Assembly (NCBI GenBank): GCA_021788365.1
Contig: JAJYKS010000007.1
Span: 1 to 33,141, forward strand
DNA from: a bacterium
Lineage (GTDB): Bacteria; Patescibacteriota; Microgenomatia; UBA1400; UBA12108
Direction of reading: 5' to 3'
Length of the DNA stretch: 33,141 bases
This document shows, one piece after another, positions 4,113-33,141 of this stretch. Below the pieces are notes generated by a model that did not search any database, was not told the DNA's origin, and worked only from the letters and a program-made list of their open reading frames with translations. Within the stretch, counting starts at the first letter, position 1, and every line of letters starts with the position of its first letter. Made by a program: the position numbers and the translations under genes.

Positions 4113-4127
4113 ATACTTATCGGAGCG

Positions 4128-7545: not shown

Positions 7546-8107
7546 TCTGAGGTATTCCAGCTTTGGCTATGATCTCGTCCGTTGTGCCGTACGGTCGACC
7601 AGCAACAATCGCCGTCGCCCGCGACGGGCCTATCCCCCAAAGAGTATCGAGCTCTGCCTCGCTCGCCGTATTTATATTGACCTTTGCGGTTTTCTGACCT
7701 GCCGATGCACTGATCTGCTGATCCTGCTGGCTAGCAGACTCGCCGACTTGCTGATTTGCCGGAATGTATATCTTCTCCCCGTCTCTAACCGGCGTAGCCA
7801 GATTGAGCGTTGCAGATACCCAGGCATGATCAGCAGATGCAGCAAGTCCCCCAGCGGCAACAAGCACCTCTCCCACCCGCGAACCCTCTGGTAGCGTGTA
7901 CACTCCAGGATTGACTACCGCCCCGGAAACATCGACCACAAGCTGTTTCGCAACACGGCTCTCGGCGTCCGTATCGTGAGAGATCTCCACCACAACAGGC
8001 GGCGGTGCAATCGCCTGCCAAAATCCGTACCCGAAGCAGGAGAGTCCAACGACTCCAACGAGCAAGGCTAAACCATATTCACGCAAAAACTCAAATATTT
8101 TACCCAC
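7505..8107 (-). CDS. comEA: ComEA-like protein (SLBB plus helix-hairpin-helix)
   Basis: VDVSGAVVNPGVYTLPEGSRVGEVLVAAGGL and VNINTASEAELDTLWGIGPSRATAIVAGRPYGTTDEIIAKAGI; GTG start. Confidence 0.88.
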   Translation of the reverse strand: MGKIFEFLREYGLALLVGVVGLSCFGYGFWQAIAPPPVVVEISHDTDAESRVAKQLVVDVSGAVVNPGVYTLPEGSRVGEVLVAAGGLAASADHAWVSATLNLATPVRDGEKIYIPANQQVGESASQQDQQISASAGQKTAKVNINTASEAELDTLWGIGPSRATAIVAGRPYGTTDEIIAKAGIPQSVYDKIKDAISVY

Positions 8108-13857: not shown

Positions 13858-14622
13858 ATGCCCACAAAAACTAGGAGAGAGATTCTAGATCCTGGAAGAG
13901 AGAAGTTAGGGACCCTTCTTTTACCCGTCCTCCTAGTATCTAGCATCTACCTTCTAGCATCTCGTCCCGCCCACGCCCAGTCCATGCGCTCCTCCGATTA
14001 CACCATCCGTCTTGGCAACTTCAACATGACGAGCGGTCTCAAAAGCTCCACAAGCTACTCGCTGACCGACACGGTTGGTCAGATAGTGGCGGACTACTTC
14101 AGCAGTACCGGCTACCATGTTAAAGCAGGTTTTCAATACCTCTATACACTGTACCCGTTTAGCTTTTCGGTAAGCTCTCTAACCGCCGACCTAGGCGCCC
14201 TATCACCAGGGAGTTTTAGCACGGCAGCAACCACCCTCACCGTCACCGCGCCGGGACAGGGATACAGCGTCACTGCTATGGAAAGTAGCAAGCTCACGAG
14301 TGCAAATAGCAATACCATCCCCGACACCATCTGTGACACCAGCTGTACAACAACAACCGCAGGCGTCTGGAATAGTACCTCTGCCTACGGCTTCGGCTAC
14401 AACGTGAGTGGTTCTGATGTACCAGCCGACTTTGTGGGGAGTACATACTTCCGCCCATTCCCCGACATATCGCTCGGCGGTACCCCGGCAACGGTGATGA
14501 CAAGTACCGCGGCCGGCAAAAATCGCACAGCAACAGTCACTTACAAAGCCGCGATTAGCGGCACCCAAGCCGAAGGATCCTACAGTACGCAAATCGTCTA
14601 TATAGCGACACCGGTATACTAA
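13858..14622 (+). CDS. Secreted surface beta-sandwich protein (WxL-like analogue)
   Basis: Signal peptide ending HAQS; C-terminal domain (TICDTSCTTTTAGVWNSTSAYGFGYNVSG...FPDISLGGTPATVM) resembles the C-terminus of 15675-17105. Confidence 0.75.
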   Translation: MPTKTRREILDPGREKLGTLLLPVLLVSSIYLLASRPAHAQSMRSSDYTIRLGNFNMTSGLKSSTSYSLTDTVGQIVADYFSSTGYHVKAGFQYLYTLYPFSFSVSSLTADLGALSPGSFSTAATTLTVTAPGQGYSVTAMESSKLTSANSNTIPDTICDTSCTTTTAGVWNSTSAYGFGYNVSGSDVPADFVGSTYFRPFPDISLGGTPATVMTSTAAGKNRTATVTYKAAISGTQAEGSYSTQIVYIATPVY

Positions 14623-14629
14623 AAAACAT

Positions 14630-15604
14630 ATGAAAAAAACACTAAACGCTGCAGTCATCACATGTCTCACACTACTTATTTCTCCCCTCGTTCCACGAGC
14701 TCACGCGCAGTCTATTGGGCTATCGATATCACCCCCGACGGTGGAAATTTTGCTCTCTCCGAACAAAAAGGTTATACAGACATTTCAACTCACAAACCAG
14801 GGAGAAAATACCGAAATAGTGCCAGAAATACACGCCGTTGTGCCAAGTGATTCTGCCGGTCACGTCGTGGTCGATCCCGCCCCCCTTTCGCCCACAAAAA
14901 TCCCGCTCATCATAAGTTGTGATCATACCTTAGGTACGCCGTTTTCAATTGCGGGTGGCGCGACAGTTCCCGTCACATTGAGTGTGGAGGGAGCAAGTAG
15001 CGACACTGTTACCGATACCTATTTTGCACTCGTACTCAAAGTGGTCCCATCCACACCGTCCCAAACACACACACTTTCTCCCACGCTTCCCGCCATCTCA
15101 ACCCTGGTATTTGTCACCCTGACGCAAACGGGTACCCTGCCCATAAATCTCGAAATTGGTAACTTCGACCCGCCCCTAGTCCAAGATTCGTGGGGAGTGC
15201 TCACCATCACACCCACCATTAAAAACACCGCACCGGTCATGATCCGCCCCAAAGGGACATACACCATCCTCTCTCCCCAGGGGAAAACGATCCTCTCGCT
15301 CCCCTTTTTCCCTAATCTGATATTAAAGACATCAGAACGGATCATTTTAGGTGAGAAAATGGCTGATGACGGCAAAACACCAGAGGCAATATCGCTCTCC
15401 TGGTCGCCACATTGGTACGACGTAGGCCCCTATCGGCTCCATCTAGCAGTCACAACCGAGGGTGGCACCAAAGTCACCGAAATCGAAAAAGTAGTCTGGC
15501 TCCTCCCTATACGAGCAACTATATTCACTGCACTGCTAGCACTATCAGCAATGACACTGCTTATATACTTCAAGAAGCGTCAAATATCTTCTACACATCC
15601 ATGA
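14630..15604 (+). CDS. DUF916/WxL-interacting-like membrane-anchored protein
   Basis: Signal peptide; IGLSISPPTVEILLSPNKKVIQTFQLTNQGENTEIVPEI; C-terminal TM and basic tail. Confidence 0.75.
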   Translation: MKKTLNAAVITCLTLLISPLVPRAHAQSIGLSISPPTVEILLSPNKKVIQTFQLTNQGENTEIVPEIHAVVPSDSAGHVVVDPAPLSPTKIPLIISCDHTLGTPFSIAGGATVPVTLSVEGASSDTVTDTYFALVLKVVPSTPSQTHTLSPTLPAISTLVFVTLTQTGTLPINLEIGNFDPPLVQDSWGVLTITPTIKNTAPVMIRPKGTYTILSPQGKTILSLPFFPNLILKTSERIILGEKMADDGKTPEAISLSWSPHWYDVGPYRLHLAVTTEGGTKVTEIEKVVWLLPIRATIFTALLALSAMTLLIYFKKRQISSTHP

Positions 15605-15637
15605 CATAATTATCAAAACATAATACATAGTATTGTA

Positions 15638-15666
15638 TTGACAGACTACTCGAAAGTTGGTTAAGT
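15638..15666 (+). promoter_or_regulatory. Possible promoter upstream of 15675 CDS
   Basis: TTGACA (15638-15643), 17-bp spacer, weak -10 TTAAGT. Confidence 0.35.
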
Positions 15667-15674
15667 AAAGGTGT

Positions 15675-17105
15675 ATGTCTCAGAAAGCCCTGATAGCTAT
15701 CGGCGTCATTCTTGTCGCAACCGGAGTAGTTCTCTACAAACCAGGAAAACTGGATTCTGCGAACTTGACCAGCGTCAAAGATACACTCCAATCCTCCCGC
15801 CTCTCGGTCGCCGCCCGCGTGAACGCAACCGGCACTGCCGTGGGTGGTAGTAACGTACAGATTTACACTGTTGCTTCCTCCCCCTACTACACCATCAGTA
15901 CCGCCAATCTGAGGGCAGGTGATACTGTCACCATCGGCTCGCACGCCTACTCGGTTGTAGGTATCGTCGACTCTGCCAACTTCACTGTCTCCCCTGTCTT
16001 AATTACCGGCGACACTACCGACGGCACCGCCATATATCTAAAAGAGAAGCCCCAGCACGTCGTCACCTTTACGACTGCAACCGCCGTCCCCAACGGTTTC
16101 TTCCAAATCCTTCTCCCCAGTAACGCCACAACCGGCAACGACGGCAACCCAGATTTCAACGGCTACGATTTCAACACCACCGTGGACGTCGTAGGAACCA
16201 ACGCCACCAACTACACTTTTGTCACTGGGGTCGCGACCGCCTCCGGCGGAACAGGTTGCACTGCCCCAGCCAACTACCATTGTTTCGAGGTGCACTACTC
16301 CGGCTCGGGCGGCGTGAGCACCGCGATCACCATTAAGATCGGCAACACCAATGGCACCAACACTCCCATAGCCCCGGCGACAGGCAGCAGCCACACGGAG
16401 GGGACCGCCGACACCTATCCCTTCATCGTCAAAAACTTCGCAGCCAGCGCCAACCCCAACACCGCCACCCCGGTAGACCAAACTACGGGTAGGATCGCCC
16501 AAATAGAATCCGTCCGCGTGACCGCGACCGTCTCGCCGACCATCAGTTTTGCAATCGCCGGCCACGCCGCTTCCGGTACCGTCTGCGGCGTCACCCCCGA
16601 CATCGACACAACTACGGGTTCAAACGCTCCCCTCGCCGTCCCCTTTGGTACCATGACCTTAAACACCTTTAAAACCGCCGTGCAATCCCTTACCGTCTCC
16701 ACCAACGCCGCCTCGGGCTACGTGGTGACGGCCAGCGAGAACCAGCCGCTCGGGAAAAATGGCGCAACGAGCCCCACGATCGCCGACACTACCTGCGACG
16801 CTGGCACCTGCTCCCAGACTACGGCCGGCGAATGGGCAACCGCCACCCACAACGGCTTCGGCTATTCTCTCCAGAACACTTCGGCTACCACTATTGCCTT
16901 TCAATATAACGACTCCGCCGGCACATTCCACGCCAAGCAGTTCGCCGACATTTCCGCCGCCGAGACACCCCAGACACTCTTCAGTAGTACAACGGTCGCG
17001 AACGCCGAAGCCGCCTACGTCTGCTACCGTCTCTCCGTAGGCGCCACTCAGGCCGCCGGCGACTACGAGAACCAGATTACTTATACCGCAACCGGAACAT
17101 TTTAA
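15675..17105 (+). CDS. Secreted surface beta-sandwich protein
   Basis: N-terminal TM/signal; Thr/Asn/Ala-rich beta repeats; C-terminus homologous to 13858-14622. Confidence 0.8.
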   Translation: MSQKALIAIGVILVATGVVLYKPGKLDSANLTSVKDTLQSSRLSVAARVNATGTAVGGSNVQIYTVASSPYYTISTANLRAGDTVTIGSHAYSVVGIVDSANFTVSPVLITGDTTDGTAIYLKEKPQHVVTFTTATAVPNGFFQILLPSNATTGNDGNPDFNGYDFNTTVDVVGTNATNYTFVTGVATASGGTGCTAPANYHCFEVHYSGSGGVSTAITIKIGNTNGTNTPIAPATGSSHTEGTADTYPFIVKNFAASANPNTATPVDQTTGRIAQIESVRVTATVSPTISFAIAGHAASGTVCGVTPDIDTTTGSNAPLAVPFGTMTLNTFKTAVQSLTVSTNAASGYVVTASENQPLGKNGATSPTIADTTCDAGTCSQTTAGEWATATHNGFGYSLQNTSATTIAFQYNDSAGTFHAKQFADISAAETPQTLFSSTTVANAEAAYVCYRLSVGATQAAGDYENQITYTATGTF

Positions 17106-19460: not shown

Positions 19461-19973
19461 ATGCCATATAAAGAACTGTTATCCTACCAGATGACAACGA
19501 TCATCTACGATCTAACCGATATTTTTGTAAGAAAATATATTGACAAACGCTCCCGTACCAGTGACCAAATGGTACAAGCCGCCAGGTCTAGTAAGCAAAA
19601 CATTGTTGAAGGCTGCAGCGAACGCACATCAAAAAAAAGCGAGCTCAAGCTCCTAGGCGTAGCCCGTGCCTCACTCAAAGAACTCCTGGAAGATTACGAA
19701 GATTACCTCAGGCAGCGCGGGCTCAGACAATGGGAAAAGTCCTCGCCAGAGTCCCTGGTAGTCCGTAATCTCTCATATAGGTCATATAAGACCTATCAGA
19801 CCTATACGTCCTATATGACAACCCCCAACAAAGCCGCCAATTGTCTTATCTGCCTCATAAATCAAGCCGGATATCTGCTCGACAAACAAATTACGAAAGC
19901 GGAACAAGATTTTCTGCAACATGGTGGGTACACAGAAAATTTGTTTCGACAGCGGCTTCAAAACCGAAAATAA
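19461..19973 (+). CDS. Four-helix-bundle protein (23S rRNA-intervening-sequence protein family-like)
   Basis: DLTDIFVRKYIDKRSRTSDQMVQAARSSKQNIVEGCSERTSKKSELKLLGVARASLKELLEDYEDYL is family-typical; interrupted by a repeat-encoded YRSYKTYQTYTSYM segment. Confidence 0.85.
   Translation: MPYKELLSYQMTTIIYDLTDIFVRKYIDKRSRTSDQMVQAARSSKQNIVEGCSERTSKKSELKLLGVARASLKELLEDYEDYLRQRGLRQWEKSSPESLVVRNLSYRSYKTYQTYTSYMTTPNKAANCLICLINQAGYLLDKQITKAEQDFLQHGGYTENLFRQRLQNRK
19772..19816 (+). repeat. 9-bp x 5 element, copy 7
   Basis: ctcatatag gtcatataa gacctatca gacctatac gtcctatat. Confidence 0.9.
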
Positions 19974-20138: not shown

Positions 20139-23100
20139 ATGAAACCAAATACTGCCCACCCTACATTCGACACCATTCTCGCCACCTGCAAGCAGTTTCT
20201 TGCAAGCACCCACCTGAGTCTCACCAGCCGCAAGCTGTATCTCGCCGACATCAAGCGGTTTTTGCACTGGCTGCAAGCCAGTAAAACCCTGAGTGAATCG
20301 AAGGGCTCGCCGCTAGATATACTCACCCAACCAAGTAACTACACCTCGTATATGGAGTCCTTGAGGAACAATGGCGCTGACAAGTCTGTGCTACTTCGCG
20401 CCCTCGCCTCGCTCAAGCAGCTCGGCACTGTGCTTTCCGCAACCTACAGCATCGCAAACCCCACCGACGGGTTCACCTTGAAGCAAAGATCCGATCTTTC
20501 CGAAGATCGGATCTTTGCTGAGAACTACATCAAACCATTCACCAACCAGCTCGAAAGCGAGCACCTCTCCCCTTTGACCGTTAGGTCCTATAAATCTGAC
20601 GTCACCCGCTACCTGCATTGGGCAAGCTCCAACACTCCTAGCACTCAGATGGATGCAGTGCTAGGCACAAAAAATCGCGAAAAATACTTGGATCATCTGC
20701 GCCAAATTGATGGAATGTCTTCGGCGACCATAGAGCGAAAAGGTAAGTCCATCGCCCGTTTTGCAACGTGGTATGCCGGTGCCTACCCGCACGCCGTACT
20801 ACCCGATAGTTCTTCCGCCCACCTAGCGAGCGGTATAGGACCTATACGTCCAATACGTCCTATTGGACCTATACGTATTGGCTCCTCTGTTCCAGAGGAA
20901 CCAATAGATTCCGTGAAAAAAAATAATTCCCGCAAACGGTTCTTTCTCCCGATTCCGCGCCTGTTCGGCCCAGGTTCCGAACTTCTGGGAGTTCGGAACC
21001 TTCTTCCCTTTGCCATCCTCCTCCTCTTCACGATTACCCTTGGCGTCTTCTCCTACCGTCAGTTCTCCCGCGATCGGGTTGTCTTGACCGAAGCCTATCC
21101 CAGCACACCGGTTACCCCGAACCGGCAGATCTCCTTCCAGGGCAGGCTCGAGAACGCCGGTGGCACACCCATAACCAGCGCCACCAACTTTGTCTTTAAG
21201 TTGTTCGATGCCGCCTCCGCCGGCACGCAGCTCTATAGTAGTGGCACGTGTTCCGTGACCCCCGACTCCGACGGCGTCTTCAATACTCAGATCGGCAGTA
21301 CCTGTGGCTCGGCGATTACCTCCGATGTCTTTACCCAAAACGCCAACGTCTATCTTGAAGTCACGGTGGGCGCCGAGACCCTCACCCCCCGCCAGCAAAT
21401 CGCCACCGTCGCCTATGCCCTAAACTCCGAGACTCTGCAGGGATTCCCCATCTCCGCAACGGTCTCTGCAGTGCGGAACACCGTCGTCCCCATGAATCAG
21501 TGGGGTGAAATCTTGGTCGGCGAGCAAAATCCGCGCATGACCGGCGTCTCAGGGACGTTTCAAATCTCCGCCCCCGCCCTCTCGCTCGCGACGACCACGG
21601 GCAGTAGTGGCAACATCACGATTGCCCCCGACGGCACCGGCCAGGTCAACGTGAACGGCAACACCACGACCACCAATTTCTTCAACGTGGCCGACGCCCA
21701 GCTCAGTACCGGCACTTTGATTACCGGCACCGTGGGGAACAACACCACCGGCTTCAAACTCCTCGACCTCCTTTCAGGAACCAGCCCCACCAGCAAATTC
21801 TCGGTAGACGCCTCCGGCAACACCACCCTCGCCGGCACGCTTAGCCTCCCCAATAGCAATACCTTAACCGGAGTGACCAATTATATTGAAGCCAGCGGCG
21901 GCCTCGCGGTAGGTAGCGGCACCACCTATAAACTGACGAGTACCGGCGATCTCTACGCTAATAACATCTACACAGGTGGTACGCAAAGGTTGGACTCCGC
22001 CGGAAATTTAACAAACATTGGCACCACCCAGCTCCACGGGGTCACCTACACCTGGCCAAGTGCCGACGCCGGCTCCTCCGGCTACGTCCTGTCTAGTAAC
22101 GCAGGCGGCACCCTCTCGTGGGTGGCCCAGACCGGCGGGGGTGGTAGCACTTATTGGCGGCTCGCCACCGGCGCACTCTCCCCGGTAAACGACACCCTCG
22201 ACCTTTTGCTCGGAGGCAACGCCACCGGCTCCGCCAAAATCGGACTAATCAACGTGAATAGCGGCACTCCCACCGCGACCATTGCCGGCACCACCGCCAA
22301 TGTAGCAACCTACCTGAATGGCAACGGCACGCTAGGGACGACCAACGCGCAAACCTTGACCCTCGGCAGTATTTCGACCGGCAACGTCATCCTCGCTCCC
22401 GGCGGCACGACAGCGTTGACCGCGGCAGGCGCCAATCTGACCGCTGCCGGCACGCTCACCCTGCCAAGCACAAACACCTTGACCGGGGTGACCAACTATC
22501 TGCAGCTTTCCCAGGGCTTGTCCGTCGGCGGCGGCACCACCTACTACATTGCCGGCAACGGTAACGGCAATCTCAACGGCCTCACGCTGGGTGCCGCCCT
22601 CGCTCTACCAAATACCAACAGCCTAACCGGGGTGTCGGGTTATGTACAATTTAACAACGGGATATCCGTGGGGGCGGCAACCGCCTATCACTTCGACAAT
22701 ACCGGCAACCTCGTCGCCCAAGGCGTCTCCGGCACGTCCCTCACCGATTCTGGGCTCACCCCCGGCTCCATCGTCTTTGCCGGCATGGCTGGTCTCCTTT
22801 CCCAAAACAACGGCAATTTTTACTGGGACAACACGAACAAGCACCTGGGCGTGGGCGCCAGCGGGACGAATCTTTTGGGTACCCTTGACCTTCGCTCCAC
22901 GCTCGGCACCCTGCCGGTCGCAACCATTTCCGGAGCGACATCCATGGCCTCCCTCATGGTCGACCAATCTGGTGTCGGCGACCTTCTTACGGCGAGCAAG
23001 TCCGGCGCCACCAAATTCGTGGTAGCCAATAATGGCAATGTGGGGATTGGCACCGCCAACCCCAGCTATCTTCTGGACGTGAACGGCAACGCCCGGATCG

Positions 23101-26100
23101 TGGGCGCCACCTTTACCAACAACGTCTATTTTGCCAACAGCTCGGACACGACCGGCTACTATGTGGACGTGAACGGCAACGCCAAATTTCTGGATTTAAT
23201 CGCCTCCGACACCGGCAACCCCGGATTAACCGTGGGCAACGGCAGCATCGGTTTTGCCAAAATCGGCGGCAGCACCATCTCCGACAACGCCGGCAACCTG
23301 ACCCTCGCCTCCGACACCGGTACGACGGACATTACCGGGAACGCTACGACCACCGGCTATGTGACGGTGGGGAACGGCATCATCAATTCGGGAGTTGCCG
23401 ACGGCACCTCGGCTCTCGGCTTCACCCTCAACACCAACAACACTCTGACCGGCGCCGACGCCAAGCTCCTCTCCATTAAAAACAACGGCACCGAAAAAAT
23501 GTACCTGGATGCCAGCGGCAACCTCTACGTCTCCGGCACGATTACCTCCGGTGCCGGCTTCTCCGTCACCGCGGTCAACAAGAGCGGCGGCACCGTCGCC
23601 AAGAAGGCACTAGTCGTCCTCGACCCCACGAACGCCAACGCCTTCACCACCACGACTACCCCCTACTCCAAGGCCGTCTTTGGTGTAGTGCAGGGGGTAG
23701 AGGTCAACAGCGACACCAACAACAACGGCGCCTGCGACGCGAACGAGACCTGTCTCATCGCCGTTGCTGGCGAGGTCGACGTTACTATTAAAAATACAAC
23801 CACGGTCGCCAAAGGCGATTATCTCTTCACCTCCGACACGGCAGGTAGCGCCTTCTCCTCCGCCAAGCAGTACGACGGCCTGGTCGGCGTCGTCTCCGAT
23901 ACTACGAATGCCGGCTCCGGCTACGTCAAGATGATTTTCAAAGTTCAGCCCCAGGTCACGGCCAGCGCCGCCATAGACAAGACCAGCAAACACAACGAGT
24001 ATTGGCTCTACGCGAACGACTACACCGCTGTCAATGAGGGTACGAATACTAATGCTAACCTCCTGGCTCGGGGGCTTACCTTTGACAATTTCTACGACAA
24101 CACCAAAACGGATAGCGCCAACACCACGGTGAGCGGCCCCGCCCCCGTTGGCGGCGCCGCCGCTCCCTATCGGGCAGGCCTCATGGGTGGCCAAACCATG
24201 AGTGCAGCAACCACCGACAATGCCGGGAATACCTATCTAGGGAGTAGTACGGTCAACAAGGTCTTCTACTACGACCGTACCAAGGACAGTATCCCCCAGG
24301 TCCAGGTAGAGCTAGGGATCGATCCTAACTGGTACAACGGGGTAACCTTGTCGGTGGCAACAACCAGTGCTCAGTTTAGCCAGAACAGTACCACTCCCCA
24401 GAAGAATCCGAACTTAAGTACCTCGTACAACGGCTCCCTGATTAAAGCCACGGGGACATATAGCAGTAACGCCAAGACTATCTATATCACCATCAAGTCC
24501 CCCACCACCTTTGACTGGACGGACTACAACGGCCAGGCTGCGACCGGCGTCACCATGACTCCCGGGACAGCCCAGGCGCTAGGGGCAACCGGTGTCTCCG
24601 CGACCTTCACCTCCGCCTCCTACAATGTCGGTGATGTCTTCAAGATCGCCTCCTGGTTCACCGAACCATCCTCTTCCACCCGTGGGGCAAAGGCCCAGTT
24701 CCCGGAACGCTCCAATATCGTGGCGACCGCCTCCTCCGTGGACGTGATCGACGCCGATACCCAGAAACTCTGGATGAGGTTTAGCACTGGCGGAACTACG
24801 ATAAATAATTCTAATATGATCGGTGCTACCGCCGATCCACTAAATTCGACAACAGCGCTAAATGGAGAAATAATAACCGCTAATACTGGAACTGTTTCTA
24901 ACTCAACAACATTCATTAGATTTTTTAGCGACGAAGCACGTATCGCGAATGCAACCGGTGGCAATGGACATAAATACAACGGTGGTATCTCTCAAAGAAA
25001 TTCTGGACTAGGAATAATTACTAGTATATATGCTAACTTTAATATAGTGGCACCTCAAGCCAACGACGTCGCCGCTGCCGTCATCCCCAACCAACCCACC
25101 GGTCAAGTGACCGTGAGTGGGTGGGGGTATATCCAAGGTGCTGCCGCAACCAACGTAAGTGAAGCCGTCAATCTGCCGTACAAATTTAATAATATTCCAA
25201 AAGTAAACATTAGCTATACCGGCGCCAAACCAACAACAGCCCCAACCTCACTTTCAGATTGTAACGCTGCTTATAATCGTTACACCGTTTGGACTGGACC
25301 AGTAACAACTACAGGTTTCTCTGCATTTATAGGGCTTACAGATGCAGCAGATGGAAACATGAGTTCAAGCTACTATTTCTGTTACACCTGGACCGCAACC
25401 GGCGTCGTCTCCCCCAAACAGTTTGTGGCGGTAGCGACAGGTAGTAGCAGCTCAAACGGCGGTACCACCGTCATCAATGAAACCGATGGCACCAGTATCA
25501 ACATCTCCATCGGCAGCCAAAGCGGCGGCACGGTCTGGCAAGACAAGGTTGCCTTTGCCAACAACACCTTATATCTAGGTGGTGGTGGTACCCCCACCCC
25601 GACCTACTTGGCAGTATATTATGGGGTTCACGGCCTATCAGCCAGCGAAACATCTTGGGCTCAATATCGGAATGGATACTACTTTGTCGGACAACAATCT
25701 AGTGGTTGGTCGGCAACCGGACCTGTAATTTTAGGTGCAAATGGTGCTCGTTTTACCTCCCTTGTCGCGACTCCAAACACCTCAACCATAAATAGCCACA
25801 GCAACACCATCTATGCCGGGACTGCCAGTGGTCTTTCTGTCATCCAAGAAAACCAGGGAGGGGGCAATGTTGCGGACGGTTCCGTGGAATCCTCCGGTTC
25901 TGTTAAATACTACACCAAAGACTACGTCTCCGAAGAAATGGTTGGGGATGTCCGCGGCATGTGGCCCTTGTCCGCCAGTGGTGCCCTTTCCTTGTCCGAC
26001 GTCTCCGTTAAGGGTAATACATTAACAAACACAGGATCCGTTACTGCAGTGAGCGGCGTTCGTGGCATGGGGGCAACGTTTAATGGGTCAAACTACCTAT

Positions 26101-29100
26101 CTATTGCAGATAATTCATCGCTTAACCTCAGTGGCGGATCAACAATGTCAGTCGGGGCCTGGTTTAAAACAACATCGTCAGGTACCGTGATTGCCAAAAC
26201 ACAGGGAGGAGTATCGTATCCAGACTTTTATCTTGTCGTCGGAGCCATATCGTCCGGAAAGATAACATTTACTATGTCTGTCACCGCAGGTACTTCTCAG
26301 GTGGCAGTCACCTCTAACACGACAGTTAATGACGGTAATTGGCACTATGCAATTGGTTCATATGATGGTGCGAACATGAATCTTTACATTGATGGAAAAT
26401 TAGACAATACAGCTGCAAGAACGGGAGCAGTTTATCACAATGCATCGGCATCTTTAGCAATTGGCGCGGTCTTGGGCACACCGAATTCCAGTTTTCTTAC
26501 AGGATCAGTCGACGAGCCATTCGTGACGGCGACAGCCCTCTCCGCCTCTCAGGTTAAACACATGTACGAGGTAGGTGCTCGTGCTCTCCAGTCCCACGCT
26601 ACTACCCTGGGTGGTGGTGGAGCCGACTTGAATCAAGAGTTAGGTGGCTCGGTCAATACGGTGGGAGACGCAAGACCGGACTACAACAACCAGTTTATGT
26701 ATGTCGGTACCAACGATGCGACGAATGGCAGGGTATCTAAGATTAGCTTAAACAGTGATACCAACGTCAAGACCTATGACAAAACCACCAATACCCCGAC
26801 AGGAGGTACCCTTCTGGCCAATGACAACACCAACACTCTCGCCGTCGGCTACAACCTGGAGACCGTGGGGAGCGCCACCAGTGGGGTAAAAACCATAGGG
26901 ATCGATTCCTACGCGACCGCCACCTCCGGCAACTTTATCGGCAAAACAGTCACCACTGCCGAATCTTTCAACCAAGCCTACGTCTGGAGCCAGTACACCC
27001 TGGACAGCTCCGACGCGAGCAACACCGTTGCCGTCTGGGCCAGCAACGACGGCGGCAGCAACTACTACCAATGCAATCTCACCAACACCGATTCCAGCCA
27101 GTCCCCTCCCGAGTACGAATACTTCTGCCAGTTCAACACTCCCGGCACTTCGCTCAAAACCAAGTTCGTTATGGCCCGCGGCTCCACCAAAACGAACACC
27201 TATATTACTCGTTACGGCGTAGCGTGGGTGAGCGGCGACGCCGTCGCGAGCGCCCCCGGCGGCAACGGACTTTACACCAACACCAATACCGCGGTCGCGA
27301 GCGGCAGCTACATCGACGTCGCCCACAACCAGGGGACGAACGATCTTTTGACAAACGCCTGGATCAATTCCCAATCCGTCTGGAAATCCCTGGATGCCAG
27401 CTACCAGCCGGCTATAGCCTGGGCAGGCAAAGATACGGAAAAAGGCGTCTACCACAACGCCGTCAATTCGTACGTACCAACCGCCGAGACTACCGACACC
27501 ACCACCAATCTCGCAAGCGGCCTCCTCTTTGACACGTTCGAAGACCAGACAAAAACCGACTCCGGCAGCACCACCGCCTCCATTACTACTCAGAAGCCGG
27601 ACGACGGCGCCGCCAACTATATGACCCTGCAAAATAGGGTCCAATCCGGCCGCGTCGGCCTCATGGGTGGCCAAACCATGAGTGCAGCAACCACCGACAA
27701 TGCCGGGAATACCTATCTAGGGAGTAGTACGGTCAACAAGGTCTTCTACTACGACCGTACCAAGGACAGTATCCCCCAGGTCCAGGTAGAGCTAGGGATC
27801 GATCCTAACTGGTACAACGGGGTAACCTTGTCGGTGGCAACAACCAGTGCCCAGTTTAGCCAAAACAGTACCACTCCCCAGAAGAACCCGAACTTAAGTA
27901 CCTCGTATAACGGCTCCCTGATTAAAGCCACGGGGACATATAGCAGTAACGCCAAGACTATCTATATCACCATCAAATCCCCCACCACCTTTGACTGGAC
28001 GGACTACAACGGCCAGGCTGCGACCGGTGTCACCATGACTCCCGGGACAGCCCAGGCCCTTGGCACGACCGGTGTCTCCGCTACCTTTACCTCCGCCTCC
28101 TACAACGTGGGCGATGTCTTCCGTATTGCTTCATGGTTTGTCGAGCCGGCTTCCGCGACCCGTGGCAGCAAAGCTCAGTTCCCGGAGAGGAGTAATGTAA
28201 TTACTCAAAATAACTACACTGATATTATTGACGCCGATACGCAAAAATTATGGATGCGTTTTAATGTGGTCGCCTGGAAGACATCGTACGTCGCTCTAAG
28301 CGCCAACATGCTCAACGGTATTCTCTATATCGCCAACAATAATAGTGCCGGTAGCGACGGCAACCTCAGGCGTCTCAATTTTGCAATCGATAACGACAAT
28401 TATCTCTATGAAGGGAGTACTTTCAAAGCCATTGGAGCCCAGACAACTATTGCTGCTAGAAATATTGCCGGTACCAGCAACGTCATTATCGCTCCCATTG
28501 GACTAGTTTCGCGCTACGCTAACGACGTCTCCGCCGCCGTCATCCCCAACCAGCCGACGGGACAGGTGACGGTAAGCGGGTGGGGATATGTGGCCGGAGA
28601 TGGGGTTAGCACAGTTCTGACAGAAGCCGTCAACTTCCCATACAAATTTAATACGACTCCAACTGTCCAAGTCTCTTGGGCTGGACAAGTAGCATCAACT
28701 CCCACTTCCTTATCAAGTTGTGCCACATCTGGCGGAAGCGGAGCAGGGCTAGGATCAACAACTGCAGCTGCAGTTGGCACAAATACATTTAACGTTAGTA
28801 TGGCAAAAAACACAAACGTTTTTGCGAGTGGTGTTTACTTCTGTTACACCTGGACCGCCACCGGCGTCGTCTCCCCCAAACAGTTTGTGGCAGTAGCAGA
28901 AGGAACGAGTATCGCCGGCGGCGCCACAGACGTAATCAATGAAACGGATGGCACGGTTGCTCATATAATGTCTGCAAACGGAGCAGTAAACACCCTTAAC
29001 TATCAATCAAAAGTCGCCATCGCCGGAAATAATCTCTATATGGGAGATGGATACCTCCCCTCTACTGGTATATCATCAGTGGATATCTACCATGGTATTC

Positions 29101-32100
29101 ACGGACTCACCTCAGAGGCAGGAGTTGCCCAATACAGACGCGGATATTATGAAGTAGGGGCTATTGGTGCCTCATTTATTCCAAGCATTTTAGGTACAGC
29201 CACCGGTGCCAACCAGATTACCTCGCTTGCCGCCACCGCCGGAACTTCAACTGTCGACGGCAAATCAAACACGCTCTACATCGGTACCACCTCTGGCCTT
29301 ACGGTATTACAAGAGAATCAAGGATCGGGGAACATCACAGACGGCTCGGAAGAATCCTCCGGTTCCGTCAAATACTACACCAAAGACTACGTCTCCGAAG
29401 AAATGGTCGGCGACATCCGCGGCATGTGGCCGCTCTCCAGTAATGGCGCATTATCTTTAACCGACGCCTCTATAAAAGGAGATACTCTCACCAATAACGG
29501 TAGTGTCACCGCTATTTCCGGCGTGCGTGGTATGGCGGCCAGCTTCAATGGAAGTAATTACTTATCCTGTACCGACGCGGCCTGTGGAGGAACGACCAAA
29601 TTAGACTCCGGCGGCACTACTTGGAGCTATGGTGCTTGGTATAAAACAACAATGACAGGGTCAGGGGGAACGGCTGGAAGAATTATTGGTAAATGGGGTA
29701 ATGGAACTGCTGGAATAGCATCGTATTTATTATCCATGGGAGATTCTGGCACCGGAAAATTGAGAGGCGTTATACAAAACAGCTCTGCAACACAAGGTAT
29801 TGTTGACGACACAACGACAAGTAATGATGGCAGCTGGCACTACGCCGTAGTAACGTATGATGGAGCTAGCCTTAAACTATATCGAGATGGACAACTAGTT
29901 AACCAAACCGCCACTACTGTCACAATCGCTGATGGAACGGCTGGTTTTGCGGTTGGAGCGGCTGACACACCAGGCTATTATTTTACCGGCTCCATCGACG
30001 AGCCCTTCGTGACCGCCACGGCTCTTTCTGCTGGTCAGGTTAAACACATGTACGAGGTAGGTGCTCGTGCCCTCCAGTCTCACGCCACAACCCTGGGTGG
30101 TGGTGGAGCCGATCTCAATCAAGAGTTAGGTGGCTCGGTCAATACGGTAGGAGACGCTCGCCCCGACTACAACAACCAGTTTATGTATGTCGGTACCAAT
30201 GACGCGACGAATGGCAGGGTATCTAAGATTAGCTTAAACAGTGATACCAACGTCAAGACGTATGACAAAACCACCAATACCCCCACGGGAGGGACACTCC
30301 TAGCCAACGACGATACCAACACTCTCGCCGTCGGCTACAACCTAGAGACCGTGGGGAGTGCCACCAGTGGAGTCAAGACTATGGGGGTAGATGACTATGC
30401 AACGGCCACGAGCGGCAGCTACTACAGCAAGACCTACACCCTCCCCCAGAATATTGGCTCGGCTGTGCTCTGGGCATCCCCAATCCTGGATAGTGCAGAC
30501 GCCGGCAACACGCTAACGGTCAAGGCCTCGGTCGACGGTGGTAGCACCTACACTACCTGTACCCTGGCCAGCACCGATTCCGCTCCCACCGTCCCCGAAA
30601 AAGAATATGCCTGCACCTTCCCCGCCTCCGGCTCTTCCCTCAAGATCCGCTTCGACTTTGCCCGCGGTTCTACGAAAACCAACACCTATCTCGTCCAGTA
30701 CGGCATCTCCTGGCTCGGCCAGAGTGGCTTTAAAATCGAGCAAACTGACAACAACACCGTCCGCCTCTACAACTACTCCGGAGAAACCCAAAACCTCCGC
30801 CTCGACGTCGTGACCGGCGGCCTCGGCAGGAACTCCGGCACCATCAGCCTGGCCCCCTCCGTGGCCGACGTCAACGCCAACTCCAACACCAACAGTATCT
30901 GGGTGAATAATACCGGCACCGGCGGCAATCTTCTCAAATTACAGTCAGGGGGAACCGATGTCCTTTCGCTCACACCCACGGGCAATCTGACCCTGACCGG
31001 CGACTTGCATTTGACGGGTAAGCTCTACGATTCAAATGTCACATCGGGCATCAGTCTCGGCGATGCGAGCAACTCCTCCCTGGTCGGCTTTGGCGCCTCC
31101 TCCTTGGTCGGCGCCCTCAACGAACTTAAAAATAGCAACGCCAACATCTCCCACAACGACTATCTCGATTGGGCCAATTACTATACCGCTAAAGCCGAAG
31201 GATCAAACTCCAACGTCAACAGTGCTCTGAACGGCCTCTTCTTCGACACCTTCGCCGATAGTACCAAACTGGACAGCGCCAACTCCACGAGTAGCGGCGC
31301 CATTCAAATCTCGGATCCATCCGCCGCTGTCAAACCTTCGGCGCCCTTCCGTGTCGGTCTCATGGGTGGCCAAACCATGAGTGCGGGGACAACCGACAAT
31401 GCGGGGAATACCTATCTTGGGAGTAGTACAGTCAACAAGGTCTTCTACTACGACCGTACCAAAGATAGTATCCCCCAGGTCCAGGTGGAGCTAGGGATCG
31501 ATCCTAACTGGTACAACGGAGTAACCTTGTCGGTGGCAACAACCAGTGCCCAGTTTAGCCAGAACAGTACCACTCCCCAGAAGAATCCGAACCTAAGTAC
31601 CACCTACAACGGCTCCCTGATCAAAGCCACGGGGACATATAGCAGTAACGCCAAGACTATCTATATCACCATCAAATCCCCCACCACCTTTGACTGGACC
31701 GACTACAACGGCCAGGCTGCTACCGGTGTCACCATGACTCCCGGGACAGCCCAGGCACTCGGGACAACCGGTGTCTCCGCAACCTTTACCTCCGCCTCCT
31801 ACAACGTGGGCGATGTCTTCCGTATTGCTTCATGGTTTGTCGAGCCCGCTTCCGCCACTCGCGGTAGCAAAGCTCAATTCCCGGAGAGGAGTAATATTAT
31901 TGGCACTTTAGCCAATAATACCAGTATTATTGATGCCGATACTCAAAAATTGTGGATGTCATTTACTGGAGGAAATAACAATACCGCGGCCACAATGACC
32001 ATGCTGGGGTATGAATCTAATTCGATAAATGCTCTCAACGGAGTTATTTATTCCGGAACTCCAAATAGCAACAATGTAGGTTTAACAATGATCCGCTTCA

Positions 32101-33141
32101 ATGTAGACTCTGCTTCTCATGCTGACGGTGGAGGGAATAATTATATGACCTGGAAAGGATCGGGGATTGCTGGCCGTAATGTTGCCTCAGGATATTCAAC
32201 TACTAATTCCTCCATATCTATTGTTAGTTCAGTTGTTAACGACGTCTCCGCCGCCGTCATCCCCAACCAACCCACCCAAACTGTGACGGTGAGTGGGTGG
32301 GGGTATATCCAAGGGAGCGGCCTTGGAACGATGGCTGAAACAGTTAGATTACCATATAAATTCAACGACATTCCAAATATAGTAACCAACATAGGGGGCG
32401 CGACAAACAGTGGCGCGCCTACAAATCTTTCAAGTTGTACAACTGGCGCATTCGGTTACGGTACGATTGCTGCTTCCGCCTCTTCTGTAGGAAATTCTTC
32501 ATTTACGGTAAACATGACCATGCCTAGTGGTACTTTTAGCTCCTCATATTATTATTGCTACACCTGGACCGCAACCGGCACCGTCTCTCCTAAGCAGTTT
32601 GTGGCCGTGGCAACCCAAGTTGGCAATACGGTCATTAATGAAACTAACCAATCATCTATCAATGTTTATAATAACGGATCTGGTTATCCAAATAAAAAGA
32701 TCTTCCTTACTTCAAAAGGCGAACTCTATTACACGGAAGATCTCACTCTTGCCAGAGCAGAAGACCAGCTTTTGGTAAAACGGAACGTTGCAGGACTCAC
32801 TACAAATCAAACTGGCGCCAATGGGTTTGATTATTATTACAATCATCAGTCCACCTCTATCCCCTCATTGGGAAGTCTGGCCTATGTCCATAGCTTGTAT
32901 GTAACCGAAAATACATCAACCTATATAAACGGTGGAAACACTGTCTATTTTGGTGATGATGGGGGTCTAAAACTAATTCAAGAAAATAGTAACTACGGAA
33001 ATGCGAGCGACGCGGGTGGTGGAACACCTGGTGGTTCCGTCAAATACTACACCAAAGACTACATTTCCGAGGAAATGGTCGGGGATGTCCGCTTAATGAC
33101 ACCATTTGCCGGAACTTCTGCATTATCTACCAACACCACTC
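20139..33141 (+). CDS. Giant membrane-anchored repetitive surface protein (partial, runs off window): tandem core-binding-like domains, TM, adhesin-like ectodomain with H-lectin-like and LamG-like modules
   Basis: Frame (codon starts at positions divisible by 3) read from ATG 20139; sections translated at the start, in the repeats and at the end (33060 tac att tcc gag gaa atg) stay in one frame. N-term LTSRKLYLADIKRFLHWLQ and LTVRSYKSDVTRYLHWAS; TM LLPFAILLLFTITLGVFSY; NNGNVGIGTANPSYLLDVNGNARI; DGNWHYAIGSYDGANMNLYIDGKL. Confidence 0.9.
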   Translation, partial: MKPNTAHPTFDTILATCKQFLASTHLSLTSRKLYLADIKRFLHWLQASKTLSESKGSPLDILTQPSNYTSYMESLRNNGADKSVLLRALASLKQLGTVLSATYSIANPTDGFTLKQRSDLSEDRIFAENYIKPFTNQLESEHLSPLTVRSYKSDVTRYLHWASSNTPSTQMDAVLGTKNREKYLDHLRQIDGMSSATIERKGKSIARFATWYAGAYPHAVLPDSSSAHLASGIGPIRPIRPIGPIRIGSSVPEEPIDSVKKNNSRKRFFLPIPRLFGPGSELLGVRNLLPFAILLLFTITLGVFSYRQFSRDRVVLTEAYPSTPVTPNRQISFQGRLENAGGTPITSATNFVFKLFDAASAGTQLYSSGTCSVTPDSDGVFNTQIGSTCGSAITSDVFTQNANVYLEVTVGAETLTPRQQIATVAYALNSETLQGFPISATVSAVRNTVVPMNQWGEILVGEQNPRMTGVSGTFQISAPALSLATTTGSSGNITIAPDGTGQVNVNGNTTTTNFFNVADAQLSTGTLITGTVGNNTTGFKLLDLLSGTSPTSKFSVDASGNTTLAGTLSLPNSNTLTGVTNYIEASGGLAVGSGTTYKLTSTGDLYANNIYTGGTQRLDSAGNLTNIGTTQLHGVTYTWPSADAGSSGYVLSSNAGGTLSWVAQTGGGGSTYWRLATGALSPVNDTLDLLLGGNATGSAKIGLINVNSGTPTATIAGTTANVATYLNGNGTLGTTNAQTLTLGSISTGNVILAPGGTTALTAAGANLTAAGTLTLPSTNTLTGVTNYLQLSQGLSVGGGTTYYIAGNGNGNLNGLTLGAALALPNTNSLTGVSGYVQFNNGISVGAATAYHFDNTGNLVAQGVSGTSLTDSGLTPGSIVFAGMAGLLSQNNGNFYWDNTNKHLGVGASGTNLLGTLDLRSTLGTLPVATISGATSMASLMVDQSGVGDLLTASKSGATKFVVANNGNVGIGTANPSYLLDVNGNARIVGATFTNNVYFANSSDTTGYYVDVNGNAKFLDLIASDTGNPGLTVGNGSIGFAKIGGSTISDNAGNLTLASDTGTTDITGNATTTGYVTVGNGIINSGVADGTSALGFTLNTNNTLTGADAKLLSIKNNGTEKMYLDASGNLYVSGTITSGAGFSVTAVNKSGGTVAKKALVVLDPTNANAFTTTTTPYSKAVFGVVQGVEVNSDTNNNGACDANETCLIAVAGEVDVTIKNTTTVAKGDYLFTSDTAGSAFSSAKQYDGLVGVVSDTTNAGSGYVKMIFKVQPQVTASAAIDKTSKHNEYWLYANDYTAVNEGTNTNANLLARGLTFDNFYDNTKTDSANTTVSGPAPVGGAAAPYRAGLMGGQTMSAATTDNAGNTYLGSSTVNKVFYYDRTKDSIPQVQVELGIDPNWYNGVTLSVATTSAQFSQNSTTPQKNPNLSTSYNGSLIKATGTYSSNAKTIYITIKSPTTFDWTDYNGQAATGVTMTPGTAQALGATGVSATFTSASYNVGDVFKIASWFTEPSSSTRGAKAQFPERSNIVATASSVDVIDADTQKLWMRFSTGGTTINNSNMIGATADPLNSTTALNGEIITANTGTVSNSTTFIRFFSDEARIANATGGNGHKYNGGISQRNSGLGIITSIYANFNIVAPQANDVAAAVIPNQPTGQVTVSGWGYIQGAAATNVSEAVNLPYKFNNIPKVNISYTGAKPTTAPTSLSDCNAAYNRYTVWTGPVTTTGFSAFIGLTDAADGNMSSSYYFCYTWTATGVVSPKQFVAVATGSSSSNGGTTVINETDGTSINISIGSQSGGTVWQDKVAFANNTLYLGGGGTPTPTYLAVYYGVHGLSASETSWAQYRNGYYFVGQQSSGWSATGPVILGANGARFTSLVATPNTSTINSHSNTIYAGTASGLSVIQENQGGGNVADGSVESSGSVKYYTKDYVSEEMVGDVRGMWPLSASGALSLSDVSVKGNTLTNTGSVTAVSGVRGMGATFNGSNYLSIADNSSLNLSGGSTMSVGAWFKTTSSGTVIAKTQGGVSYPDFYLVVGAISSGKITFTMSVTAGTSQVAVTSNTTVNDGNWHYAIGSYDGANMNLYIDGKLDNTAARTGAVYHNASASLAIGAVLGTPNSSFLTGSVDEPFVTATALSASQVKHMYEVGARALQSHATTLGGGGADLNQELGGSVNTVGDARPDYNNQFMYVGTNDATNGRVSKISLNSDTNVKTYDKTTNTPTGGTLLANDNTNTLAVGYNLETVGSATSGVKTIGIDSYATATSGNFIGKTVTTAESFNQAYVWSQYTLDSSDASNTVAVWASNDGGSNYYQCNLTNTDSSQSPPEYEYFCQFNTPGTSLKTKFVMARGSTKTNTYITRYGVAWVSGDAVASAPGGNGLYTNTNTAVASGSYIDVAHNQGTNDLLTNAWINSQSVWKSLDASYQPAIAWAGKDTEKGVYHNAVNSYVPTAETTDTTTNLASGLLFDTFEDQTKTDSGSTTASITTQKPDDGAANYMTLQNRVQSGRVGLMGGQTMSAATTDNAGNTYLGSSTVNKVFYYDRTKDSIPQVQVELGIDPNWYNGVTLSVATTSAQFSQNSTTPQKNPNLSTSYNGSLIKATGTYSSNAKTIYITIKSPTTFDWTDYNGQAATGVTMTPGTAQALGTTGVSATFTSASYNVGDVFRIASWFVEPASATRGSKAQFPERSNVITQNNYTDIIDADTQKLWMRFNVVAWKTSYVALSANMLNGILYIANNNSAGSDGNLRRLNFAIDNDNYLYEGSTFKAIGAQTTIAARNIAGTSNVIIAPIGLVSRYANDVSAAVIPNQPTGQVTVSGWGYVAGDGVSTVLTEAVNFPYKFNTTPTVQVSWAGQVASTPTSLSSCATSGGSGAGLGSTTAAAVGTNTFNVSMAKNTNVFASGVYFCYTWTATGVVSPKQFVAVAEGTSIAGGATDVINETDGTVAHIMSANGAVNTLNYQSKVAIAGNNLYMGDGYLPSTGISSVDIYHGIHGLTSEAGVAQYRRGYYEVGAIGASFIPSILGTATGANQITSLAATAGTSTVDGKSNTLYIGTTSGLTVLQENQGSGNITDGSEESSGSVKYYTKDYVSEEMVGDIRGMWPLSSNGALSLTDASIKGDTLTNNGSVTAISGVRGMAASFNGSNYLSCTDAACGGTTKLDSGGTTWSYGAWYKTTMTGSGGTAGRIIGKWGNGTAGIASYLLSMGDSGTGKLRGVIQNSSATQGIVDDTTTSNDGSWHYAVVTYDGASLKLYRDGQLVNQTATTVTIADGTAGFAVGAADTPGYYFTGSIDEPFVTATALSAGQVKHMYEVGARALQSHATTLGGGGADLNQELGGSVNTVGDARPDYNNQFMYVGTNDATNGRVSKISLNSDTNVKTYDKTTNTPTGGTLLANDDTNTLAVGYNLETVGSATSGVKTMGVDDYATATSGSYYSKTYTLPQNIGSAVLWASPILDSADAGNTLTVKASVDGGSTYTTCTLASTDSAPTVPEKEYACTFPASGSSLKIRFDFARGSTKTNTYLVQYGISWLGQSGFKIEQTDNNTVRLYNYSGETQNLRLDVVTGGLGRNSGTISLAPSVADVNANSNTNSIWVNNTGTGGNLLKLQSGGTDVLSLTPTGNLTLTGDLHLTGKLYDSNVTSGISLGDASNSSLVGFGASSLVGALNELKNSNANISHNDYLDWANYYTAKAEGSNSNVNSALNGLFFDTFADSTKLDSANSTSSGAIQISDPSAAVKPSAPFRVGLMGGQTMSAGTTDNAGNTYLGSSTVNKVFYYDRTKDSIPQVQVELGIDPNWYNGVTLSVATTSAQFSQNSTTPQKNPNLSTTYNGSLIKATGTYSSNAKTIYITIKSPTTFDWTDYNGQAATGVTMTPGTAQALGTTGVSATFTSASYNVGDVFRIASWFVEPASATRGSKAQFPERSNIIGTLANNTSIIDADTQKLWMSFTGGNNNTAATMTMLGYESNSINALNGVIYSGTPNSNNVGLTMIRFNVDSASHADGGGNNYMTWKGSGIAGRNVASGYSTTNSSISIVSSVVNDVSAAVIPNQPTQTVTVSGWGYIQGSGLGTMAETVRLPYKFNDIPNIVTNIGGATNSGAPTNLSSCTTGAFGYGTIAASASSVGNSSFTVNMTMPSGTFSSSYYYCYTWTATGTVSPKQFVAVATQVGNTVINETNQSSINVYNNGSGYPNKKIFLTSKGELYYTEDLTLARAEDQLLVKRNVAGLTTNQTGANGFDYYYNHQSTSIPSLGSLAYVHSLYVTENTSTYINGGNTVYFGDDGGLKLIQENSNYGNASDAGGGTPGGSVKYYTKDYISEEMVGDVRLMTPFAGTSALSTNTT
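20287..20305. repeat. Dispersed palindromic repeat in giant ORF
   Basis: CCCTGAGTGAATCGAAGGG. Confidence 0.7.
20482..20519. repeat. Perfect 17-bp inverted repeat, 4-nt loop, inside giant ORF
   Basis: AGCAAAGATCCGATCTT-TCCG-AAGATCGGATCTTTGCT. Confidence 0.95.
20831..20875 (+). repeat. 9-bp x 5 element, copy 8
   Basis: gcggtatag gacctatac gtccaatac gtcctattg gacctatac; encodes GIGPIRPIRPIGPIR. Confidence 0.9.
20878..20906. repeat. 13-bp inverted repeat (1 mismatch), 3-nt loop
   Basis: ATTGGCTCCTCTG-TTC-CAGAGGAACCAAT. Confidence 0.85.
20972..21001. repeat. 12-bp perfect inverted repeat, 6-nt loop
   Basis: AGGTTCCGAACT-TCTGGG-AGTTCGGAACCT. Confidence 0.9.
24176..26900 (+). repeat. Large ectodomain module, copy 1
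   Basis: LMGGQTMSAATTDNAGNTYLGSSTVNKVFYYDRTKDSIPQVQVELG ... LamG-like ... NTLAVGYNLETVGSATSGVK. Confidence 0.9.
27656..30380 (+). repeat. Large ectodomain module, copy 2
   Basis: 27661 onward is identical to 24181 onward for about 190 nt, then near-identical; same domain order. Confidence 0.9.
31355..33141 (+). repeat. Large ectodomain module, copy 3 (partial)
   Basis: Starts 31360 tcatgggtggccaaaccatgagtgcg...; same order, cut by window end. Confidence 0.9.

What the first reader, a model, noticed from the sequence alone, without database searches (positions are those of the whole stretch)
24176..33141. Mosaic modules: near-identical DNA blocks flanking divergent cassettes
Three modules start at 24181, 27661 and 31360. 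The first ~190 nt of modules 1 and 2 are identical and the following ~230 nt differ at only a few positions, but the segments between LWM(R/S)F and ND V(A/S)AAVIPNQPT (about 24781-25065, 28261-28525, 31960-32235) are essentially unrelated at DNA level. Near 24610-24670, module 1 differs from modules 2 and 3, which agree. This fits gene conversion homogenising the scaffold while receptor-facing cassettes diversify.
Basis: partly seen in the sequence, partly recalled or inferred. Interest (0 to 1): 0.72.

Follow-up and report, generated by a model that had tools for sequence, protein, structure and literature searches.

The report
Mosaic modules of giant surface protein
A very large surface protein of a tiny, probably host-attached bacterium is built from repeated units whose shared parts are kept nearly identical by DNA recombination, while the parts between them look like interchangeable cassettes shared with distant relatives, which may let the cell change what it sticks to.

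Summary
One open frame (20139-33140, at least 4334 aa, cut by the contig end) in a Patescibacteria MAG carries three tandem modules. A second contig holds the tail of a probable fourth. In each module, near-identical blocks alternate with four or five divergent segments, not one.

Homogenisation of the blocks is supported. The 5' part of block I groups modules 1 and 2, the 3' part groups modules 2 and 3 (max-chi2 30.8, 0 of 10000 shuffles). Blocks I and V are 6-11% as diverged within the genome as between genomes.

"Cassettes diversify in place" is not supported. Cassettes of sister modules are as different as cassettes of different genera (ratio 0.98-1.13; LamG 0.67). Cassette E of modules 1, 2 and 4 belongs to three types found in other genomes (one clade rejected, p-AU 3e-75). 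Cassettes A-D keep a low GC3 (0.35-0.41) inside a GC3 0.65-0.72 gene.

Best reading: a recombining adhesin, with block conversion inside the genome plus cassette replacement from a pool shared among lineages. A predicted model shows a beta-propeller with a beta-sandwich and a LamG lectin inserted. Ligand binding is inferred. No reads were available, so array order and strain chimerism are untested.

The parts
20139..33140 (+). Giant ORF, >=4334 aa, open at the contig end; continues, after a gap, on contig C16 (1169 aa tail)
20139..21052 (+). N-terminal anchor: Xer-like core-binding (Phage_int_SAM) domains without a catalytic domain hit, followed by a predicted transmembrane helix (about aa 288-305, read from sequence)
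   Evidence: Pfam PF02899 E 1.3e-7; conserved in L020, L027, L028, L050
21120..21311 (+). MAT_N-like (mosaic adhesive trimer) stretch just after the membrane helix
   Evidence: NF053851 E 6e-7, 29 bits, below curated cut-off 60
24180..24647 (+). Module 1 block I (homogenised)
24648..24776 (+). Module 1, 3' end of block I, where modules 2 and 3 agree against module 1
24777..25061 (+). Module 1 cassette A (predicted propeller blades); GC3 0.26
25062..25133 (+). Module 1 block II
25134..25379 (+). Module 1 cassette B (core of a predicted beta-sandwich inserted in the propeller); GC3 0.32
25380..25433 (+). Module 1 block III
25434..25892 (+). Module 1 cassette C (predicted propeller blades)
25893..25970 (+). 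Module 1 block IV, with a synonymously conserved DNA island (AAATACTACACCAAAGAYTA)
25971..26498 (+). Module 1 cassette D = LamG/ConA-like lectin domain
   Evidence: Pfam PF13385 E 1.9e-19
26499..26888 (+). Module 1 block V (predicted last propeller blades)
26889..27230 (+). Module 1 cassette E, type alpha (83% identical to L021)
27231..27659 (+). Linker between modules 1 and 2 (divergent)
27660..28256 (+). Module 2 block I and its 3' end
28257..28520 (+). Module 2 cassette A
28521..28592 (+). Module 2 block II
28593..28841 (+). Module 2 cassette B
28842..28895 (+). Module 2 block III
28896..29357 (+). Module 2 cassette C
29358..29435 (+). Module 2 block IV
29436..29984 (+). Module 2 cassette D (LamG)
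   Evidence: Pfam PF13385 E 9.7e-16
29985..30374 (+). Module 2 block V
30375..30716 (+). Module 2 cassette E, type beta (74% to L052)
30717..31358 (+). Linker between modules 2 and 3
31359..31958 (+). Module 3 block I and its 3' end
31959..32237 (+). Module 3 cassette A
32238..32309 (+). Module 3 block II
32310..32555 (+). Module 3 cassette B
32556..32609 (+). Module 3 block III
32610..33029 (+). Module 3 cassette C
33030..33141 (+). Module 3 block IV and the start of cassette D; last 110 nt (33032-33141) identical to C16:121-230, upstream sequences unrelated; contig ends here

Best explanation
The region is a tandem array of about 1100-residue modules in a giant, probably membrane-anchored surface protein of a Patescibacteria cell. 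Shown: blocks and cassettes have different histories. Blocks I and V of this genome's modules share a recent common origin, and block I shows a recombination switch between modules. Cassettes in the same modules are as diverged from one another as from other genera, and E falls in types found in other genomes. Inferred: (1) the module array arose by duplication in this lineage (most relatives have one module); (2) RecA-type intragenic recombination, as conversion or unequal crossing-over, keeps homogenising the blocks; (3) cassettes are replaced from a pool that circulates among lineages, using the conserved blocks as homology on both sides, with DNA taken up perhaps by competence; (4) each module is a beta-propeller carrying a beta-sandwich and a LamG lectin as inserts, and the array presents several different binding faces at once, for attachment to host cells or for changing what phages can grip.
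For: Topology switch in block I: 17 sites group M1+M2 against 2 grouping M2+M3 on the 5' side, then 19 grouping M2+M3 against 0 grouping M1+M2 on the 3' side; max-chi2 30.8, 0/10000. Amino-acid Dwithin/Dbetween: block I 0.06, block V 0.11, cassettes A 1.04, B 0.99, C 0.98, E 1.13, D 0.67, which controls for constraint. Block trees: modules one clade (93/92 and 98/95); cassette E: one clade rejected, p-AU 3e-75; C p=0.01, D p=0.047. The nearest relative changes from segment to segment. GC3 of A-D is 0.35-0.41 against 0.63-0.69 in blocks of the same modules (stratified by amino acid, z 4.2-7.9); across genomes block GC3 follows the rest of the gene (slope 0.84), cassette GC3 does not (slope 0.16, p 0.5). 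Two-module G079 shows the same split: E of its modules falls in two different types while block I groups. Fold: propeller Z 23.7 over 278 residues at 3.1 A spanning 174-912; LamG. ComEC/ComEA-like genes in the window; comEC-dependent transformation is shown in a Saccharibacterium (PMC10633639).
Against: Only species-level representatives were available, so no recent cassette swap between near-identical strains was seen, and donors are distant (best A-D match to another genome 58% DNA identity, 65% in the short C2 end). Long blocks I and V are only 63-70% identical in DNA between genera, too diverged for efficient direct homologous recombination, so exchange would have to go through closer relatives. 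Clade tests for A and B are not significant (p 0.07) because these segments are nearly saturated. Low GC3 could also come from relaxed codon selection. Clear homogenisation is seen in one genome only. The structure model is of moderate confidence (pLDDT 65, pTM 0.60; residues 1-99 unreliable). Surface location and binding are inferred.
Confidence: 0.68

Rival explanations
1. Ancient module array with concerted evolution of blocks only: the cassettes are old paralogous types kept by selection since before the genera split, with no import; gene conversion homogenises blocks and stops at the divergent cassettes.
For: Explains block trees, the topology switch and old cassettes equally well. Two-module G079 carries E types of both clades.
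Against: Most relatives have a single module, so an ancient array needs many losses. A long-resident cassette should have taken on the GC3 of its gene, but A-D have not.
Confidence: 0.2
2. In-place diversification: a recent module duplication, blocks held by conversion or purifying selection, cassettes changed by rapid point mutation and indels under positive selection.
For: Cassettes do contain many indels and saturated substitutions.
Against: Cassette E of M1, M2 and M4 is closer to three different foreign genomes (83%, 74%, 60%) than to each other (41-53%); one clade rejected at p-AU 3e-75. Four-fold sites are saturated in cassettes and nearly unchanged a few hundred nt away, so no single duplication time fits.
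Confidence: 0.06
3. Assembly chimerism or strain mixing: repeats made the assembler join pieces from different strains or paralogues.
For: The contig ends at a 110-nt repeat shared with C16 after unrelated upstream sequence. No read data.
Against: One frame stays open through 13 kb. Blocks with the same alternation of cassettes recur in independent assemblies, including a complete genome (L022, CP129470) and a 174-kb contig with two modules (G079).
Confidence: 0.06

Closest known systems
Mosaic adhesive trimer (MAT) fibres of Bdellovibrio (PMC10769870)
   Same: Conserved anchoring end and diversified adhesive parts on the surface of a bacterium that attaches to other bacteria; weak sequence match of the stretch after the membrane helix to the MAT_N model.
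   Different: MAT diversity is spread over 21 separate proteins with a diversified tip; here several variable cassettes sit inside tandem modules of one giant protein. Match is below the curated cut-off; no S74 domain found; trimer not tested.
Intragenomic recombination of NRPS adenylation domains (PMC9205934)
   Same: Modular giant gene, conserved flanks and swapped specificity segment with a different history from the rest of the module.
   Different: An enzyme assembly line, not a surface protein; donors there are in the same genome.
Giant1-5 surface proteins of Apilactobacillus kunkeei (PMC12863079)
   Same: Proteins of 3000-8000 aa shaped by intragenic recombination and exchange between genera.
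   Different: That study reports no recent gene conversion between the giant genes of one genome; here block conversion between modules is the main signal.
Large surface proteins with ConA-like domains of Patescibacteria (PMC13059738)
   Same: Proteins over 1500 aa, membrane-bound, with ConA-like and other adhesion domains in an epibiont.
   Different: Described as a list of candidates; no module or cassette exchange described in the passages read.

Membership tests
LamG / ConA-like lectin domain proteins | PF13385 match above curated cut-off | tested here: met
   70.7, 58.7 and 64.7 bits vs cut-off 27.6 for modules 1, 2 and the C16 module
Beta-propeller fold | Circular array of four-stranded blades, by fold comparison | tested here: met
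   Predicted model only: VIA-align Z 23.7, 278 residues, 3.1 A, model range 174-912, interrupted by inserts; pLDDT 65
MAT superfamily | MAT_N domain (NF053851) | tested here: inconclusive
   29.3 bits, E 6e-7, curated cut-off 60 bits
MAT superfamily | Intertwined trimeric beta-prism fibre | not tested
   No trimer prediction was run
MAT superfamily | S74 autoproteolytic chaperone (S74 subfamily only) | tested here: not met
   No S74 hit in the C16 C-terminal part; the non-S74 subfamily does not need it
Diversity-generating retroelement | Reverse transcriptase in the genome | tested here: not met
   No PF00078 match in the 94.8% complete genome
Diversity-generating retroelement | Changes confined to adenines of a template copy | tested here: not met
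   All six mismatch types in cassette A of M1/M3, many indels
Silent-cassette antigenic variation (pilE/pilS, MgPa type) | Partial silent copies elsewhere in the genome | tested here: not met
   Module 1 matches only C7 and C16; LamG ORFs on C5 are unrelated. Genome incomplete and fragmented
Concerted evolution of tandem modules | Paralogous blocks cluster by genome, with recombination breakpoints | tested here: met

The most novel reading that the evidence does not exclude
Short block sequences, above all block IV, are kept at the DNA level across distant Patescibacteria lineages because they act as recombination anchors: receptor-domain cassettes move between lineages by crossing over in these islands, so that a shared cassette pool serves giant adhesins across the radiation. 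Block IV has the highest synonymous conservation of the whole module (observed/expected 1.47; excess 0.23 against 0.177 at the 95% level and 0.227 at most in 300 simulations). Its 24-nt motif occurs only in these modules (6 of 373 genomes), and a within-genome breakpoint lies at its left edge.
Probability: 0.2. Interest if true: 0.75.

Novelty: new variant of a known kind. Interest (0 to 1): 0.58.

Why it matters
How Patescibacteria, most known ones living attached to other microbes, recognise and change hosts is open. A protein whose scaffold is homogenised while binding-type domains are swapped from a shared pool would give a concrete, sequence-trackable route for changing attachment, and cassette types could be matched to hosts or phages in metagenomes. 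It also warns that these genes break short-read assemblies and will be missed or truncated.

Tried and rejected
DGR: no reverse transcriptase and no adenine-limited change. Silent cassette store: none in the assembled genome; LamG ORFs on C5 are unrelated. GC-biased gene conversion as cause of the GC3 contrast: blocks are not richer (0.63-0.69) than the non-repeated part of the same gene (0.72); it is the cassettes that are low. Differential constraint alone: ruled out by the within/between ratio. Phage origin: no PHROG match; one weak viral-contig relative over 140 residues (L025). Block IV motif as a genome-wide recombination site: found only inside modules. Blocks II and III as DNA-level anchors: raised codon identity (ratios 1.20, 1.26) but not beyond the simulated maximum, so suggestive only. 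Correlation of segment distance matrices (blocks I-V r 0.60, blocks against cassettes A, B and D near 0) is weak evidence because cassettes A-D are near saturation. PDB/Foldseek hits to neurotoxin binding domains reflect only the shared jelly-roll lectin fold.

Full report
WHAT IS THERE. The window is the whole of contig C7 (33141 nt) of a 1.09-Mb, 26-contig genome, 94.8% complete. Its relatives include Microgenomates records, so it is a Patescibacteria (CPR) MAG. One frame runs from 20139 to the contig end, at least 4334 aa. It starts with Xer-type core-binding domains and a membrane helix, followed by a stretch that weakly matches the MAT_N model, then beta-rich repeats, then three modules starting at codons 24180, 27660 and 31359. 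Contig C16 carries a 1169-aa C-terminal part with a further module end. The last 110 nt of C7 are identical to C16:121-230, but the sequences just upstream are unrelated. C16 is therefore a fourth module or a strain variant of module 3, and the contig broke at the repeat.

CHECK OF THE OBSERVATION. Modules 1 and 2 are identical over 194 nt (24177-24370), with a sharp 5' edge (28% identity in the 60 nt upstream), then 11 differences in 229 nt. At 24610-24670 module 1 differs from both others at 15 sites, which differ from each other at 1. The codon alignment shows that the block/cassette pattern repeats through the module: blocks I-V alternate with variable segments A-E. Cassette A has no significant DNA similarity between modules, but it is still homologous as protein (21-27%).

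RECOMBINATION AMONG MODULES. Of 43 informative sites in block I, the first 22 read 17 M1=M2, 3 M1=M3, 2 M2=M3, and the last 21 read 19 M2=M3, 2 M1=M3. The maximum chi-square is 30.8, not reached in 10000 shuffles. The switch lies between about codons 113 and 135. In the 3' end of block I the GC3 of modules 2 and 3 (0.49, 0.43) is that of cassettes, while module 1 keeps 0.79, as if an incoming tract reached further into the block in modules 2 and 3.

HISTORY OF BLOCKS AND CASSETTES. Related modules were taken from other genomes, among them LCLX01000003 (L020), JAMCTH010000007 (L021), the complete Dojkabacteria genome CP129470 (L022) and JAGORQ010000003 (L023). The gene is patchy: 14 of 373 genomes of the class match at E 1e-20, 3 of 42 of one family at E 1e-40. 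The mean divergence between sister modules divided by that to other genomes is 0.06 (block I), 0.11 (block V), 0.23 (block III), but 1.04 (A), 0.99 (B), 0.98 (C), 1.13 (E) and 0.67 (D, LamG, lowered by ten residues shared by modules 3 and 4). This ratio takes out differences in constraint. In trees, the modules of this genome are one clade in blocks I and V. In E they fall with three different groups of genomes, and holding them together is rejected with p-AU 3e-75. C (p 0.01) and D (p 0.047) also reject; A and B (p 0.07) do not reach significance and are close to saturation. The two modules of G079 repeat this: together in block I, in different E groups. The nearest relative changes from segment to segment, and cassette B of the Dojkabacteria record is 65% identical to that of G049.

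COMPOSITION. In this genome cassettes A-D have GC3 0.35-0.41, blocks 0.63-0.69, the part of the gene upstream of the modules 0.72. Stratified by amino acid, the contrast has z 7.9, 7.7, 7.5 and 4.2 in modules 1-4. Across genomes, block GC3 follows the rest of the gene (slope 0.84, r 0.70) and cassette GC3 does not (slope 0.16, p 0.5), with L020 as a GC-rich exception. Circulation of cassettes among mostly AT-rich lineages explains this. Relaxed codon selection in variable segments is the rival, but E is type-swapped and yet GC-rich (0.74-0.77), so being variable is not enough.

FOLD. An AlphaFold2 model of module 1 (16 sequences; pLDDT 65, pTM 0.60; residues 1-99 unreliable) aligns with solved beta-propellers at Z up to 23.7 (278 residues, 3.1 A) over residues 174-912. 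From the aligned lengths and the strand pattern, I infer that the stretches of about 290-420 (blocks II-III and cassette B) and 600-797 (LamG, cassette D) interrupt the propeller as inserted domains; the LamG matches arabinanase domain 4 (Z 20.8, 194 residues, 2.6 A). Cassettes D and E coincide roughly with whole domains, A and C with propeller blades. This is what interchangeable units should look like, but it is a prediction.

DNA ISLANDS. Codons of same-residue columns are more alike between genomes than codon usage predicts in blocks IV (1.36), III (1.26) and II (1.20), and not in block V (1.00) or hardly in block I (1.07). In a window scan the peak of the whole module is block IV (VKYYTKDYV; excess 0.23, simulated maximum over 300 runs 0.227, 95% level 0.177); the other peaks lie within the simulations. 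The 24-nt motif of block IV occurs in 6 of 373 genomes of the class, each time in one of these modules. It may be an anchor for crossing over, or a mark of recent exchange; shared descent adds dependence that the simulation does not model.

MECHANISM. Shown: module-to-module recombination in block I, and different histories for blocks and cassettes. Inferred: conversion or unequal crossing-over keeps blocks alike; cassettes are replaced from other lineages between conserved blocks; the variable domains bind glycans or other surface ligands. The window also encodes ComEC- and ComEA-like proteins, and comEC-dependent transformation is known in a cultured Saccharibacterium (PMC10633639), so uptake of DNA is plausible here but not tested. 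The main limit is that only one genome per species was available and no reads.

COMPARISON. The pattern works like domain exchange in modular enzymes (PMC9205934) and like the conserved-anchor, variable-tip design of Bdellovibrio MAT fibres (PMC10769870). Giant proteins of Apilactobacillus recombine too, but without recent conversion between the giant genes of one genome (PMC12863079). Large ConA-bearing surface proteins are known in Patescibacteria (PMC13059738). I found no paper in the held library describing gene conversion or cassette exchange in them; most subscription papers are not held. I file it as a new variant of a known kind: a modular adhesin under concerted evolution with cassette replacement.

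Noticed in passing
20139-21052: Two Xer-like core-binding (SAM-like) DNA-binding domains without a catalytic domain sit at the N-terminus, apparently on the cytoplasmic side of a membrane helix, in front of a giant surface protein; similar N-termini are in L020, L027, L028 and L050. Why a surface protein carries it is unexplained.
   Followed up: partly
5421-8107: MBL-fold, ComEC-like and ComEA-like (SLBB+HHH) genes: competence locus on the same contig.
   Followed up: partly
13858-17105: Genes weakly matching CPR Pam pilus models (PamT, Pam pilin) just upstream of the giant gene, all below cut-off.
   Followed up: no
3501-5120: A protein with a weak dockerin match next to one with a cohesin domain match: possible cohesin-dockerin pair in a Patescibacteria genome.
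   Followed up: no
19461-19973: Four-helix-bundle (23S rRNA IVP-like, TIGR04258) gene of lower GC (0.44) directly upstream of the giant gene.
   Followed up: no
L063 (G000:C5:1-7585): Small contig with LamG proteins and pilin-like leaders that look archaeal (DPANN-like, by eye); possibly mis-binned into this genome.
   Followed up: partly
L020:11261-12130: In the LCLX01000003 module, cassette C is interrupted by an extra LamG-like stretch.
   Followed up: no
L028 (G005:C2): In a same-family genome the single module has GC3 0.27 in its blocks while the rest of the gene has 0.49 and the stretch after the membrane helix is 64% identical to the window's; the whole module looks imported.
   Followed up: partly
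L025: A 340-kb IMG/VR contig encodes proteins weakly like the block I/cassette A stretch (28% over 140 aa); two such ORFs lie side by side.
   Followed up: partly
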